IMG/VR virus record: IMGVR_UViG_3300025174_000850
Coordinates: 1 to 47,813 of that record
Direction: 5' to 3' (one strand)
DNA length: 47,813 nucleotides
DNA from: a virus
Part shown: positions 1 to 4,208 of the stretch, piece by piece
Numbering within the stretch: position 1 is the first letter of the stretch
Layout of the letters: every line of letters starts with the position of its first letter
Position numbers and translations under genes: made by a program
The notes under the pieces: model-generated
What the model saw: the letters and a program-made list of their open reading frames with translations, nothing else
What the model was told of the DNA's origin: nothing
The model's database searches: none

Positions 1-1107
1 AATCAACTCTCGATTAGATTTATCCTTGAATTGCTCTACTGATTTAATTCCATTAAGCACAAGTTCCCTGGAGTAAATAGCGCCAATACCATTCAACCTA
101 CAAAGATCGGCTTCTTCCCAGGATACTCCATATTTAATTCGATAAAGCAATTTATCAAAATAATACCCAGGATTTCCTTTTAAAATACGAATATAAATTT
201 TAGTAATACAAGAAATAATCCTGTTGGCATCGGTAATATAAGGAATGACCAAGGAATAAAATTTTCTAGTAACCTCCTCATCGCCATTCATTCTCATCCA
301 AAGCACTGTACCAAGAGTAAGAGCTCCTTCTGAAATAGAATGTAATTGTTTAGGTGAAGTACAGGCCATGAATGAATTCGAATAAGGCTTTAAATCTTTA
401 GGCACGTATCCACCAAGCATTGATCTAATATTAGCGATAGCCCAAGCGATAGCCGCAGTATCCTGTAAAAGCTGCCTATCCATGATGATTTTTAAATTAT
501 TCTTCCACGATACTACATCAAGTGGATCGAAATAATGATAAGCTGCTAGCTTGCCAAGATAGGTGCAAACATATTGGATATCCTTATCAGTATTATCAAA
601 ATCTAACGGTTGAGTAATATCCGGCTTGATCAATCCATAAAAACTAAACTCTTCAAACATGGATTCTGCCGTTGTTGAAGAAAAGAAATCCTGCTTGACA
701 GCTAACGTACGGTTAGACCAGGAAGATATTTCATTGATTGTAGTAACCCTTTTCTCAGCAATCTCGCCAATAAGATGAAAACCAATTTTAGGAACGATAG
801 TTGATTTCACTATCGGAGGACGTGTTAAAAGATCTCTCCACCTAGGTAACTTAGCTTCATCGACAATAAGAGTCGCATCACCTTCCGTATCGTACTTAGG
901 CCTACCAGCTCGACCACACTCTTGAATAATATCTAATGGATCAACCTCATTAAGACCTCTATCCGTACCTAGAATAGCCACTCTTCTAGCTGGCAAATTA
1001 CAATTATGCGTAAGGATACCGTTAGCAAAAAAATTATGATTTTTATTTATCTGAAGATCGTAATGAATCGTACCGGCCAATTGTCTTTTTATAGATTTTA
1101 TTTTCAT
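1..1107 (-). CDS. Hel308/Ski2-like helicase, C-terminal half, led by split-intein C fragment (partial)
   Basis: This frame is open from an ATG at 1107 to the window edge, so the 3' end is missing. The first 35 codons are a split-intein C fragment (listed separately) ending THN. The next residue is Cys, followed by NLPARRVAILGT, the sequence that normally follows the TLAYG motif of Ski2/Hel308 superfamily 2 helicases. Motif VI is seen as QECGRAGRP. Further down come a winged-helix-like stretch and a helix-hairpin-helix-like segment (LCRLNGIGAIYSRELV), as in Hel308. The matching N-terminal half is 1842-3089, in another frame. The predicted role is a 3'-5' DNA helicase in replication or repair, active only after trans-splicing. 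The ATG has a weak AAGAG 6-7 nt upstream and overlaps the end of the endonuclease gene. Function is by family; splicing is inferred. Confidence 0.85.
   Translation of the reverse strand, partial: MKIKSIKRQLAGTIHYDLQINKNHNFFANGILTHNCNLPARRVAILGTDRGLNEVDPLDIIQECGRAGRPKYDTEGDATLIVDEAKLPRWRDLLTRPPIVKSTIVPKIGFHLIGEIAEKRVTTINEISSWSNRTLAVKQDFFSSTTAESMFEEFSFYGLIKPDITQPLDFDNTDKDIQYVCTYLGKLAAYHYFDPLDVVSWKNNLKIIMDRQLLQDTAAIAWAIANIRSMLGGYVPKDLKPYSNSFMACTSPKQLHSISEGALTLGTVLWMRMNGDEEVTRKFYSLVIPYITDANRIISCITKIYIRILKGNPGYYFDKLLYRIKYGVSWEEADLCRLNGIGAIYSRELVLNGIKSVEQFKDKSNRELI
1003..1107 (-). other. Split intein C fragment (Int-C, 35 aa)
   Basis: Thirty-five codons starting at its own ATG. Block F is visible (HYDLQINKNHNFFANG), then block G ILTHN with penultimate His34 and terminal Asn35. 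The +1 extein residue is Cys, the nucleophile needed for trans-esterification. The length and the MKIKSIKRQ-type start resemble the C fragments of naturally split inteins such as NrdJ-1 and gp41-1. An in-frame TGA directly precedes the ATG and TAA codons lie further upstream, so it cannot be read through from the N half. Confidence 0.88.
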
Positions 1108-1828
1108 TCAATACTCTTAAAATTTTAGAGATTAAATTAATTCTTGAAATATTATTTTCCAAAAAAATTCTTATAATTTTCCAACCTAGACCGCTAAGGT
1201 ATAAATCCTTTCTCATATCTCTTATTTTACTTTTTAAATGTAATTTAGAATCAAGTTCAATACCTAACTTATTTTTTAATAAAGCAAAATCTACTGTATA
1301 ACAACCTAATTTAAACGGTATTTTATAATTATAAATAAACCCATACAGAATTAACAATTCATTGACAATTTTTTCAAATCGACTCATTCCTTTACCGTTA
1401 CCGAGATAACTTAAAGGCGATACTCTTTTTCCAGTTCGGTATTCGTTTAAAAGTCTTTCTCTAGTTAAACAACTCAATCTATTCTTAGTTTCTTCTGTAT
1501 GTTTTTTTCTATAAAATGGATTTCCAGAACCGATAAATTTTCCACTAGAATGAATCCTATGTAATTCAAAATCTGGGCTAGCATATACTTTCCTCATTGA
1601 TAATCGTATACGTTCGATTGTCTCTTTTGTTTGAGGCAATCTATTTTTAGCCGATATACTCAATTTAATTTTAGTCGATTCACACGTTAATTCAGCATCT
1701 GGAAAACGTAATTTATATTCTTTTATTTTTATTTTATGCATACCCAAATGCCCAGTACTTATTTGCTTACCTTTCCAACCGCAAATTTTACATTCGACAA
1801 AATCTTCCATAAAATAATCATAGACCAT
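1043..1828 (-). CDS. Free-standing homing endonuclease, ROS/MucR zinc finger + NUMOD3 + EDxHD (Vsr-like) nuclease
   Basis: A protein of about 261 aa if started at ATG 1828; the frame is open to 1906, and ATG 1810 is another option. Visible parts in order: a zinc-finger-like unit CKIC...HLGMH (Cys13, Cys16, His27, His31) resembling the ROS/MucR finger; a NUMOD3-like DNA-binding motif (NPFYRKKHTEETKNRLS, about 104-120), with a second weaker one before it; then a very-short-patch-repair-like nuclease core with Glu152 (FEK), Asp180 (TVDF), Glu191-Asp193-His197 (IELDSKLH), Asp204/Asp208 and GWKIIRI. This is the EDxHD family first described beside split inteins in fractured genes. It sits in frame 2 between the two helicase halves and overlaps both intein fragments' ends. 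The presumed role is cutting intein-less helicase alleles so that the element spreads by homing. Confidence 0.82.
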   Translation of the reverse strand: MVYDYFMEDFVECKICGWKGKQISTGHLGMHKIKIKEYKLRFPDAELTCESTKIKLSISAKNRLPQTKETIERIRLSMRKVYASPDFELHRIHSSGKFIGSGNPFYRKKHTEETKNRLSCLTRERLLNEYRTGKRVSPLSYLGNGKGMSRFEKIVNELLILYGFIYNYKIPFKLGCYTVDFALLKNKLGIELDSKLHLKSKIRDMRKDLYLSGLGWKIIRIFLENNISRINLISKILRVLNENKIYKKTIGRYDSLRSSDK

Positions 1829-1841
1829 AGGCCATTGTAGG

Positions 1842-2147
1842 TCAACATAATTCTTCTTGCAGCACAACATCATCATCAACCAGTAGATTTTGAGCCATTT
1901 TTTCAATTAAACCGTTCGGAGTTCTAACGTAAAAAGGATGTTTCCAATCAACTCTAACTATTCTCCCATCCATCAATTCTAACTCAAATTCATGTGTAGG
2001 ATCATATACCATCGAAGTCACAACATTATCGCTCTCAATTTTTTTAGTGAGCTCATTAAACGACCAAACATTATCTCCAGGACGAATATCTTGAACTTCT
2101 TTTACATCCCCATTCGACAAACTAATTTTTGTTCCGTAAGCAACCGA
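1842..2147 (-). other. Split intein N fragment (Int-N, 101 aa)
   Basis: The last 101 codons of the helicase N half. Block A begins at Ser1 (SVAYGTKISLSNG) instead of the more common Cys. The Hint pattern continues with VQDIRPGDNVWSF and block B DGRIVRVDWKHPFYV, whose His is kept but whose usual Thr three residues earlier is Asp. It ends in a typical LLVDDDVVL tail just before the stop, the point where natural split inteins break. Ser1 and the Asp at the TxxH position are unusual and could slow or alter splicing. Confidence 0.87.
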
Positions 2148-3089
2148 ACCATAAGCTAAAGTTGATGTGGCTACTAAATATTGGATCTTCTTATCCTTGA
2201 AATTAGTCTCTATCGTAGCCCTACTATCTTTATCAAGATCGGCATTATGAATAGCCGTTATTTTATCGAAACGATTATCCAACCACTCATAGGCTTTCTT
2301 TTGAATGGCCTTGGAATGGGCAAATATTAGCCACTGATCGTCTGGATTGCGGGTGATGATATCAAGTAGCCTATCCAGAATAAGCCGCTCGGATATGGCA
2401 TGATATTCATAACGTTTGTAATACGACGGCATGACGAATGGCTCATAGGAGATATTTAATTTACATGGTCTGTAAGTTGAGAAAACAACCTCAGTAGGCT
2501 TCTTATTGAGATCGGTTAACCATTCGGCCAATTGCCGGTAATTTTCCATTGTAGCAGAGAGAAAAACAATACGAGCTGTAGGATTCCTCCGAGTAAAAAG
2601 GATAAGGCTATTCTCCAGATGGTCACCCCTACCAAGAGAACCAATAAAATGAGCCTCATCAATAATAAGCGTACCGATCTCATTAATATACTTAGAACGC
2701 TCAATAGAAAAACGTCTACATCTGACTGCAAACATTTCATAGGTGGATACAATTATTTTAGCTTTCTGAAGTAATGCTTCTCTCTCCTCAGTAAGCTTAT
2801 AATCTCCTGTAAGCACAATCATTGAATAGTTCTGAAAATAATGCCCATTAGACCAGTCCTGGCACTTCTCCTCGGTCAAGGCTTTGAGTGGAGTAAGATA
2901 AGCTACACGCTTACCATCGCATAAAGATTTAGCCGCTATTAGCTCCGCTGCGATGGTCTTACCGGAAGATGTCGGGGCCGCTATCGAAACATTACAGTCC
3001 TTCTCGATATGAGGAAACACTTCAGATTGTACGGGATTCAGATATTTGAAAGGATAAGAACCGTATTTAAACTCAGTTGTTTTAATCAT
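1842..3089 (-). CDS. Hel308/Ski2-like helicase, N-terminal half, ending in split-intein N fragment
   Basis: A 415-aa reading frame. Residues 1-314 are the N-terminal part of a superfamily 2 DNA/RNA helicase: Walker A PTSSGKT (39-45), motif Ia LTPLKAL, DEAH box (144-147), SAT (178-180), the start of the second RecA-like domain (DQWLIFAHSK) and motif V LVATSTLAYG (305-314). Residues 315-415 are an intein N fragment. The chain stops at 1842, far short of motif VI; the rest of the helicase (CNLPARR..., QECGRAGRP) is in 1-1002. Splicing would join TLAYG to CNLPARR, giving the continuous motif found in intact relatives. It starts at ATG 3089, overlapping the upstream gene by 8 bp. It is the last replication gene seen in the leftward operon. 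Confidence 0.88.
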   Translation of the reverse strand: MIKTTEFKYGSYPFKYLNPVQSEVFPHIEKDCNVSIAAPTSSGKTIAAELIAAKSLCDGKRVAYLTPLKALTEEKCQDWSNGHYFQNYSMIVLTGDYKLTEEREALLQKAKIIVSTYEMFAVRCRRFSIERSKYINEIGTLIIDEAHFIGSLGRGDHLENSLILFTRRNPTARIVFLSATMENYRQLAEWLTDLNKKPTEVVFSTYRPCKLNISYEPFVMPSYYKRYEYHAISERLILDRLLDIITRNPDDQWLIFAHSKAIQKKAYEWLDNRFDKITAIHNADLDKDSRATIETNFKDKKIQYLVATSTLAYGSVAYGTKISLSNGDVKEVQDIRPGDNVWSFNELTKKIESDNVVTSMVYDPTHEFELELMDGRIVRVDWKHPFYVRTPNGLIEKMAQNLLVDDDVVLQEELC

Positions 3090-3345
3090 AAATAGATTTT
3101 TTCAATTCTTCTTCCGATAAGCTTTCAAAATTAATTACCCATTCATAGTAATAATCACCATCGATAACATTCAAGAATTTATAAGCACAAAAAGGTACAC
3201 AAACAATCTTTTCTATTACTTGCTGTGTTGTATCGGTACCACTAATAACCACCGGTTTATCGACAATAATATACTTTAGATTAATCGAATTGACTTCAGT
3301 TTCATACCCGTCATACGGTCCATTACGCAAAATCAATTTGCTCAT
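3082..3345 (-). CDS. Small hypothetical protein (87 aa)
   Basis: I do not recognise a family. The protein is acidic, begins MSKLILRNGPYDGYE and carries many aromatic residues near its C terminus (DYYYEWVINFE). No membrane segment or cysteine cluster is visible. The start at ATG 3345 lies inside the end of the upstream gene (23-bp overlap), and its end overlaps the helicase start by 8 bp, so it is probably translationally coupled in the replication operon. The RNGPYDG start recalls small phage proteins of unknown function that begin with a similar phrase, but this is not a functional assignment. Confidence 0.6.
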   Translation of the reverse strand: MSKLILRNGPYDGYETEVNSINLKYIIVDKPVVISGTDTTQQVIEKIVCVPFCAYKFLNVIDGDYYYEWVINFESLSEEELKKSIYD

Positions 3346-3664
3346 CTTTTACATTCTCAATAATTTCTAATTCCTCATTGAATGGTGTCGAGTTAAGTAT
3401 TTCCTCATAGGCTTTCTCACCACATGCCCGTTTAAATTCTTCGGCCCATCTTGGATAACGCTTACCCATTTTGATAAGCGGTACAAACTGGCCTGGTTCG
3501 ATCTTCATGTTAGCTTTGAGAGCTCGCATGATAATTTCTTTACAACGATCTTCTTCCTTTTTTATACCCCTGGAAGCTTCATCGTAGGATAGACGCTTGC
3601 TGCGGTAATCTCTATATTGCCTAATTATTTCTTGAGCTAATTGATGAAATTCTTTCTTCGCCAT
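3323..3664 (-). CDS. Hypothetical protein (113 aa), replication operon
   Basis: Unrecognised. The composition is highly charged and largely helical (many Glu/Lys/Arg): the N-terminal part is basic (QYRDYRSKRLSYDEASRG) and the C terminus acidic (ELEIIENVKDEQIDFA). The acidic tail ending in hydrophobic residues could act as a protein-interaction tail, as in DNA-replication accessory proteins, but this is only a guess. It starts at ATG 3664 and overlaps the CHC2 zinc-finger gene by 44 bp upstream and the next gene by 23 bp, consistent with tight operon packing. Confidence 0.6.
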   Translation of the reverse strand: MAKKEFHQLAQEIIRQYRDYRSKRLSYDEASRGIKKEEDRCKEIIMRALKANMKIEPGQFVPLIKMGKRYPRWAEEFKRACGEKAYEEILNSTPFNEELEIIENVKDEQIDFA

Positions 3665-4208
3665 AACGTATCTCCAATAAAAATCTAAGTTTATTTATGA
3701 TGTAATCAACGACATGCTGGGAACATTGTTCGAGATATTTTATATCTTGCCTTTCCTCAGCTAGTTGCCAGTAAGTATCAATAATTTCACAAAGATGATC
3801 CAACCAATCGTTATAAAGATTCTCAAAAAACCATGGAGGAAGATTATCTAGAACTCTCCATACACGACTAGTAAGAGTTCTTTCCCACGAATCAAGAATC
3901 TCTTTAGGGATAACAGAATCTATTTTTCTAGGTCGAAGAATAAGCACTGACCTGGACAACTTAAAAATAGTCATCAATGCTTTAATCGCGTCCTTCATAG
4001 AACATCGCTTATACAGCATGTAAAATCGGATTACTCCACCGCCTTCACCACATTGATAGCATTTAAATCTATTATCGGTAAAATAAAGTTTGAGCGATGG
4101 AGTTCTATCTGAATGTCCAGGACAAGATATGAACCCAGCATGATTAGGCTTGAACCCTAAATGATTTACCAATTGCTCTAACTTGATTTTAGATTCAATT
4201 AAACTCAT
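3621..4208 (-). CDS. CHC2 zinc-finger (primase-type) protein
   Basis: A 195-aa protein with an N-terminal DnaG/CHC2-type zinc-binding module: FISCPGH, then FTDNRFKCYQCGEGGGVI, giving the Cys-x2-His...Cys-x2-Cys arrangement at about residues 29-57. Downstream of the finger the helix SMKDAIKALMTI is also typical of the CHC2 domain. The protein ends soon after and I see no TOPRIM catalytic motifs (no Glu...DxD pattern), so it is either a stand-alone template-recognition subunit or a truncated primase. It lies directly after a coiled-coil protein and the DnaB-type helicase, the expected place for a primase component. Its ATG overlaps the upstream stop by 4 bp. Confidence 0.75.
   Translation of the reverse strand: MSLIESKIKLEQLVNHLGFKPNHAGFISCPGHSDRTPSLKLYFTDNRFKCYQCGEGGGVIRFYMLYKRCSMKDAIKALMTIFKLSRSVLILRPRKIDSVIPKEILDSWERTLTSRVWRVLDNLPPWFFENLYNDWLDHLCEIIDTYWQLAEERQDIKYLEQCSQHVVDYIINKLRFLLEIRYGEERISSISSRNN

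What the first reader, a model, noticed from the sequence alone, without database searches (positions are those of the whole stretch)
1..3089. Fractured Hel308-like helicase: natural split intein with a free-standing EDxHD homing endonuclease between the halves
Seen directly: helicase N half ends ...TLAYG followed by a Hint N fragment (Ser1, DGRI...WKH block B) and a stop at 1842. A separate ATG at 1107 begins a 35-codon fragment ending ILTHN followed by Cys and the helicase continuation NLPARRVAILG...QECGRAGRP. An endonuclease with ROS/MucR finger, NUMOD3 and EDxHD residues lies between. The three parts are in three frames, each with its own start and stop, so this is not one frameshifted gene. 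Known: fractured genes with split inteins and EDxHD nucleases were found in phage metagenomes for DnaB-type helicase, IMPDH and ribonucleotide reductase. Inference: I know of no case in a Ski2/Hel308 helicase, and the motif V/VI insertion point would inactivate the unspliced enzyme.
Basis: partly seen in the sequence, partly recalled or inferred. Interest (0 to 1): 0.95.

Follow-up and report, generated by a model that had tools for sequence, protein, structure and literature searches.

The report
Phage helicase gene broken by split intein
A bacterial virus carries a DNA helicase gene broken into two separate genes, each bearing half of a self-splicing protein element (intein) and with a DNA-cutting homing gene parked between them; the arrangement is a known kind of mobile element, but this helicase had not been reported to carry it as far as could be checked.

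Summary
On the minus strand of a 47.8-kb IMG/VR phage contig, a Hel308-like (Ski2-type SF2) helicase is broken in motif V, TSTLAYG|CNLPARR. The N half ends in a 101-aa Int-N, the C half begins with a 35-aa Int-C, and a nuclease gene in a third frame lies between. Int-N and Int-C score 58 and 40 bits against profiles built without the window; the best shuffles score about 5. Joined, the exteins align without a gap at the junction to 26 uninterrupted relatives. The nuclease domain's best structural match is I-Bth0305I (3R3P), the EDxHD reference structure (Z 11.6). The same layout occurs in UvsW, UvsX and NrdA of phage isolates, so a sequencing error is unlikely. New here: the same motif V junction holds continuous inteins (LAGLIDADG where scanned) in about ten other viral Hel308 genes, yet the window's intein resembles phage split inteins more than those. 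So an intein in viral Hel308 is not unique, but the split form with an EDxHD nuclease was seen only here. Splicing and homing are inferred. Verdict: new member of the fractured-gene class, host gene apparently unreported.

The parts
2148..3089 (-). N-extein: Hel308-like helicase, RecA1 and part of RecA2, motifs I (TSSGKT), II (DEAH), to the first half of motif V (TSTLAYG)
   Evidence: DEAD 4.7e-32, Helicase_C 1.8e-7; PRK02362/Hel308 8.8e-36
1842..2147 (-). Int-N, 101 aa, Ser1 nucleophile, block B VDWKH (His present, usual Thr is Asp), stop TGA
   Evidence: PF14890 2.1e-6; leave-one-out profile 58.5 bits
1043..1828 (-). free-standing homing endonuclease gene (ATG 1828 or 1810), own frame, overlaps the Int-C start by 65 nt
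1085..1390 (-). EDxHD/Vsr-like catalytic domain; invariant E, D, H, D over five homologues
   Evidence: profile hits 3R3P 3.8e-6; AF2 model pLDDT 82 matches 3R3P Z 11.6, Vsr 1CW0 Z 9.7
1472..1531 (-). NUMOD3 DNA-binding motif of the nuclease
   Evidence: PF07460 1.9e-4
1003..1107 (-). Int-C, 35 aa, blocks F and G (YDLQINKNHNFFANG, ILTHN), own ATG
   Evidence: PF14890 1.4e-5; TIGR01443 32.1 bits; leave-one-out profile 40.5 bits
1..1002 (-). C-extein: Cys+1, NLPARR (second half of motif V), motif VI QECGRAGRP and Hel308-like C-terminal part; cut by the contig end
   Evidence: PRK02362 9.3e-12; aligns with LR756511 helicase

Best explanation
A mobile 'fractured gene' element sits in motif V of a phage Hel308-like helicase. 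The phage makes two helicase fragments from two adjacent genes; Int-N and Int-C associate, Ser1 and Cys+1 carry out class 1 protein trans-splicing, the Int-C terminal Asn cyclises, and an intact helicase with TSTLAYGCNLPARR results. The nuclease encoded between the halves is an EDxHD homing endonuclease expected to cut the empty helicase site in co-infecting phages, so that repair copies Int-N, nuclease and Int-C together. Shown: anatomy, motifs, gapless joined extein, nuclease fold, same layout in isolates. Inferred: splicing, cleavage and its target, mobility.
For: Intein halves recognised by Pfam, TIGR and leave-one-out profiles. Joined exteins align without a gap at the junction to 26 continuous relatives; the site lies in the most conserved ~0.5-0.8% of the protein. 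Continuous helicases without any insert at this site: LR756511 and most of L006-L036. Nuclease domain: EDxHD residues invariant, profile hit to I-Bth0305I, top structural match Z 11.6, NUMOD3. Low GC of the insert. Int-N/ORF/Int-C layout in UvsW of S16 and PM2 and, with another intervening ORF type, in UvsX of SEA1. Motif V is a repeated intein site in viral Hel308.
Against: Only one example of the split form at this site, on one metagenomic contig; the C half is cut by the contig end. The block B Thr is replaced by Asp, which could slow splicing, although the cis-intein of L047 has Asp there too. No close relative with an empty site to show mobility. No experiment.
Confidence: 0.9

Rival explanations
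1. A continuous intein with an in-frame endonuclease, broken by sequencing or assembly errors.
For: Continuous LAGLIDADG inteins exist at exactly this site in other viral Hel308 genes.
Against: The nuclease here is EDxHD, not LAGLIDADG, with its own ATG, stop and frame; at least two precise errors would be needed. The catalytic domain of homologues ends just before the Int-C ATG. Similar start/stop overlaps occur in S16 and PM2 isolate genomes. The split site is the canonical one between blocks B and F.
Confidence: 0.03
2. A dead element: the halves no longer splice, and the helicase works as two polypeptides or is lost.
For: Block B Thr to Asp; a gene-in-pieces reductase made by a homing endonuclease insertion is described for another phage (cited in PMC10448857).
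Against: All other splicing residues are kept (Ser1, block B His, HN, Cys+1), both extein parts are open and conserved; the break falls in motif V, where an unspliced two-piece enzyme would be unlikely to work (inference).
Confidence: 0.06
3. Within the main reading, a different origin: the split form descends from the resident LAGLIDADG cis-intein at the same site by loss of its endonuclease and fracture.
For: Exactly the same junction, Cys+1 in both; a tree puts the window next to L055, but with support 0.135.
Against: Splicing-domain scores: 82, 73, 70, 65 bits to the UvsW, NrdA, UvsW, UvsX split inteins, 39 or less to every cis-intein at this site; Ser1 instead of Cys1.
Confidence: 0.2
4. 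A group I or II intron with an encoded homing endonuclease, not an intein.
For: EDxHD-type nucleases also occur in introns (PMC12350094, PMC3943268).
Against: No Rfam match at gathering threshold in 1-4000; both ends are coding intein domains ending in the splicing residues.
Confidence: 0.01

Closest known systems
Fractured genes with split inteins and EDxHD nucleases (Dassa et al. 2009, doi 10.1093/nar/gkp095; paper not held, content recalled; cited through PMC7090010, PMC12350094)
   Same: conserved enzyme interrupted by Int-N, free-standing EDxHD gene, Int-C; canonical split position
   Different: host genes recalled for that set are gp41/DnaB-type helicase, IMPDH, NrdA/NrdJ and others; a Hel308/Ski2 helicase is not among those I recall
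Fractured UvsW of Salmonella phage S16 and Proteus phage PM2
   Same: SF2 helicase, same three-gene layout and overlaps, closest split intein found (82 bits)
   Different: different helicase family, break in motif II (DE|CH), intervening ORF matches NUMOD3 and weakly a TnsA-like nuclease; Cys1 instead of Ser1
Continuous inteins in viral Hel308-like helicases (L028/L045, L046-L049, L051-L053, L055)
   Same: identical insertion point TST(L/V/I)A(W/Y)G|CN(L/F)PARR
   Different: one continuous frame, mostly ~430 aa, LAGLIDADG_3 domain in those scanned, Cys1; low similarity to the window's intein
I-Bth0305I (PDB 3R3P)
   Same: catalytic domain fold, Z 11.6, rmsd 2.6 over 92 residues
   Different: about 21% identity; intron-encoded
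Inteins in archaeal aLhr2 RecA2 domains (PMC8301817)
   Same: SF2 helicase RecA2 domain as an intein site
   Different: cellular, continuous, LAGLIDADG

Membership tests
Natural split intein (class 1) | Int-N with nucleophile at position 1 and block B His on one protein, Int-C with blocks F/G ending His-Asn on another, Cys/Ser/Thr +1 | tested here: met
   Ser1, VDWKH, THN, Cys+1; profiles. Block B Thr is Asp
Natural split intein (class 1) | protein trans-splicing activity | not testable with these tools
   needs co-expression
Fractured gene (Dassa type) | free-standing nuclease gene between Int-N and Int-C, separate start and stop | tested here: met
EDxHD homing endonuclease | E, D, H, D active-site residues and Vsr-like fold | tested here: met
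EDxHD homing endonuclease | site-specific cleavage of the intein-less allele | not testable with these tools
   needs purified nuclease and target DNA
Hel308/Ski2-like SF2 helicase | best match of both halves to Hel308 models, motifs I-VI | tested here: met
   scores stay below the equivalog cut-off, so Hel308-like, not Hel308 proper
LAGLIDADG cis-intein | continuous frame with LAGLIDADG domain | tested here: not met
   present instead in L028, L046, L055
Group I/II intron | catalytic RNA structure | tested here: inconclusive
   no Rfam match at the gathering threshold

The most novel reading that the evidence does not exclude
Two unrelated intein mobility systems, continuous LAGLIDADG inteins and a split intein with an EDxHD nuclease, have independently homed to the same motif V codon boundary of viral Hel308-like helicases, so that they compete for one site.
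Probability: 0.6. Interest if true: 0.6.

Novelty: new member of a known kind. Interest (0 to 1): 0.5.

Why it matters
It extends the fractured-gene class to a Ski2-type helicase and gives one protein site that is found empty, filled by a continuous LAGLIDADG intein, and filled by a split intein with an EDxHD nuclease. That makes the questions of how split inteins arise and why homing elements choose motif V directly comparable, and adds a Ser1/Cys+1 natural split intein that could be tested as a protein-ligation tool.

Tried and rejected
No close relative of the N half or of the C-half junction was found in IMG/VR outside this record (the tool may leave out very near records). A contig from another metagenome with an identical terminase, L071, gave no match to the N half and is only 11.6 kb. 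Continuation of the C half at the other contig end: the open frame there is not in register and its sequence does not look like a helicase tail. A whole-nuclease AlphaFold model was poor (pLDDT 45) and was not used; only the catalytic domain was. The genome contigs pattern scan gave only two chance hits, which does not exclude cellular Hel308 inteins at other sites or with other +1 residues. A wider pattern allowing Ser or Thr at +1 gave no further contigs. The intein tree did not resolve the origin of the window's intein. Dassa 2009 is not held. No held paper found describes a Hel308 intein or a split UvsW.

Full report
What is there. The window is a linear IMG/VR virus record of 47,813 bases from a tailed phage: family A DNA polymerase, CHC2 primase domain, DnaB-like helicase, RecA, portal, terminase and J-like tail protein. 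At its left end, on the minus strand, three genes follow one another: 3089-1842, 1828-1043 and 1107-1, the last two overlapping. They lie in three different frames.

The helicase. The first 314 residues of the N half and the 334 residues of the C half after Int-C both match Hel308 models best (PRK02362 8.8e-36 and 9.3e-12), below the equivalog cut-off, so Hel308-like. Joined in silico, the exteins align over their length with a continuous 675-aa helicase in a 595-kb uncultured phage, LR756511 (35% identity), and with about 30 further viral helicases. Around the junction there is no gap in any of 26 continuous relatives, and the site falls in the most conserved ~0.5-0.8% of the protein, inside motif V. 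Cys at the +1 position also occurs in relatives without an intein (L006, L008, L032).

The intein. Int-N is 101 aa and Int-C 35 aa, the canonical split between blocks B and F. Pfam Intein_splicing matches both, TIGR01443 matches Int-C above its cut-off, and profiles built from four other phage split inteins without the window find Int-N at 58.5 bits and Int-C at 40.5 bits; 400 shuffled proteins reach at most 5.2 and 4.5. Ser1, the block B His, the terminal His-Asn and Cys+1 are present. The block B Thr is Asp; the cis-intein in L047 shares this. The joined splicing domain also finds solved inteins, among them NrdJ-1 and gp41-1.

The nuclease. NUMOD3 and DUF559 match; a zinc-finger match is weak. 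Its relatives include free-standing homing endonuclease genes in Rhizobium phage TM61 and other phages. A four-sequence profile of the catalytic domain hits PDB 3HRL (6e-9) and 3R3P, I-Bth0305I (3.8e-6). Five homologues share invariant E, D, H and D. The AlphaFold2 model of the domain (pLDDT 82) has 3R3P as best structural match, Z 11.6, rmsd 2.6 over 92 residues, followed by 3HRL, with Vsr at Z 9.7. This is an EDxHD/Vsr-type domain. The insert is AT-rich: 27.6% GC in the nuclease against 40 and 37% in the exteins.

Comparison. The same layout exists in deposited phage isolates: UvsW of Salmonella phage S16 and Proteus phage PM2, broken in motif II; UvsX of Salmonella phage SEA1; NrdA of Campylobacter phage CC_R7. 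These are annotated as separate enzyme pieces and hypothetical genes. They make a sequencing-error reading of the window unlikely. A DNA pattern for an intein end followed by CN(x)PARR, blind to cis or trans, found 11 viral contigs: all are Hel308-like helicases with an intein at exactly the window's junction. Nine could be read through both junctions (one intein sequence occurs in two contigs): lengths 302-433 aa, one frame, with a LAGLIDADG_3 domain in the three scanned. So motif V of viral Hel308-like helicases is a repeated intein site, and the window is the only split case seen. A different relative, L022, has a continuous intein at Walker A.

Origin. The window's splicing domain scores 65-82 bits against the phage split inteins and 39 or less against the cis-inteins at its own site. 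This favours independent arrival at the same site over fracture of the resident intein; the tree does not settle it (support 0.135).

Mechanism and limits. The most likely course is trans-splicing of the two halves into an active helicase, with the nuclease spreading the whole insert to empty sites in co-infecting phages. Splicing, cleavage and mobility are inferred from the families; none could be tested. The C half is cut by the contig end, and there is a single copy with no close relative to compare. In the papers searched, no fractured or intein-bearing Hel308 is described, but the founding paper (Dassa et al. 2009) is not held, so novelty of the host gene rests partly on memory.

Noticed in passing
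L022:3825-5001: Viral Hel308-like helicase with a continuous intein at Walker A (TSSGK|AQSDD...THN|TVVAEM).
   Followed up: partly
L037/L038/L039:1222-7761: A 2180-aa ORF, possibly a terminase-like protein, with three intein-like C-termini; one of its middle parts is low-complexity and odd.
   Followed up: no
L014:7787-9100: A further intein-like ORF (CGDTLIIID...ILVHN|C) in a small gene close to a Hel308-like helicase.
   Followed up: no
L061:1865-4200: UvsX of Salmonella phage SEA1 is fractured by a split intein; the ORF between has NUMOD3 but no EDxHD-type match.
   Followed up: partly
L062:1184-5252: NrdA of Campylobacter phage CC_R7 is fractured by a split intein with two small ORFs between, and its C half seems to hold a second intein.
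   Followed up: no
L071: 11.6-kb IMG/VR contig with a terminase identical to the window's, so this phage seems to recur in another assembly.
   Followed up: partly
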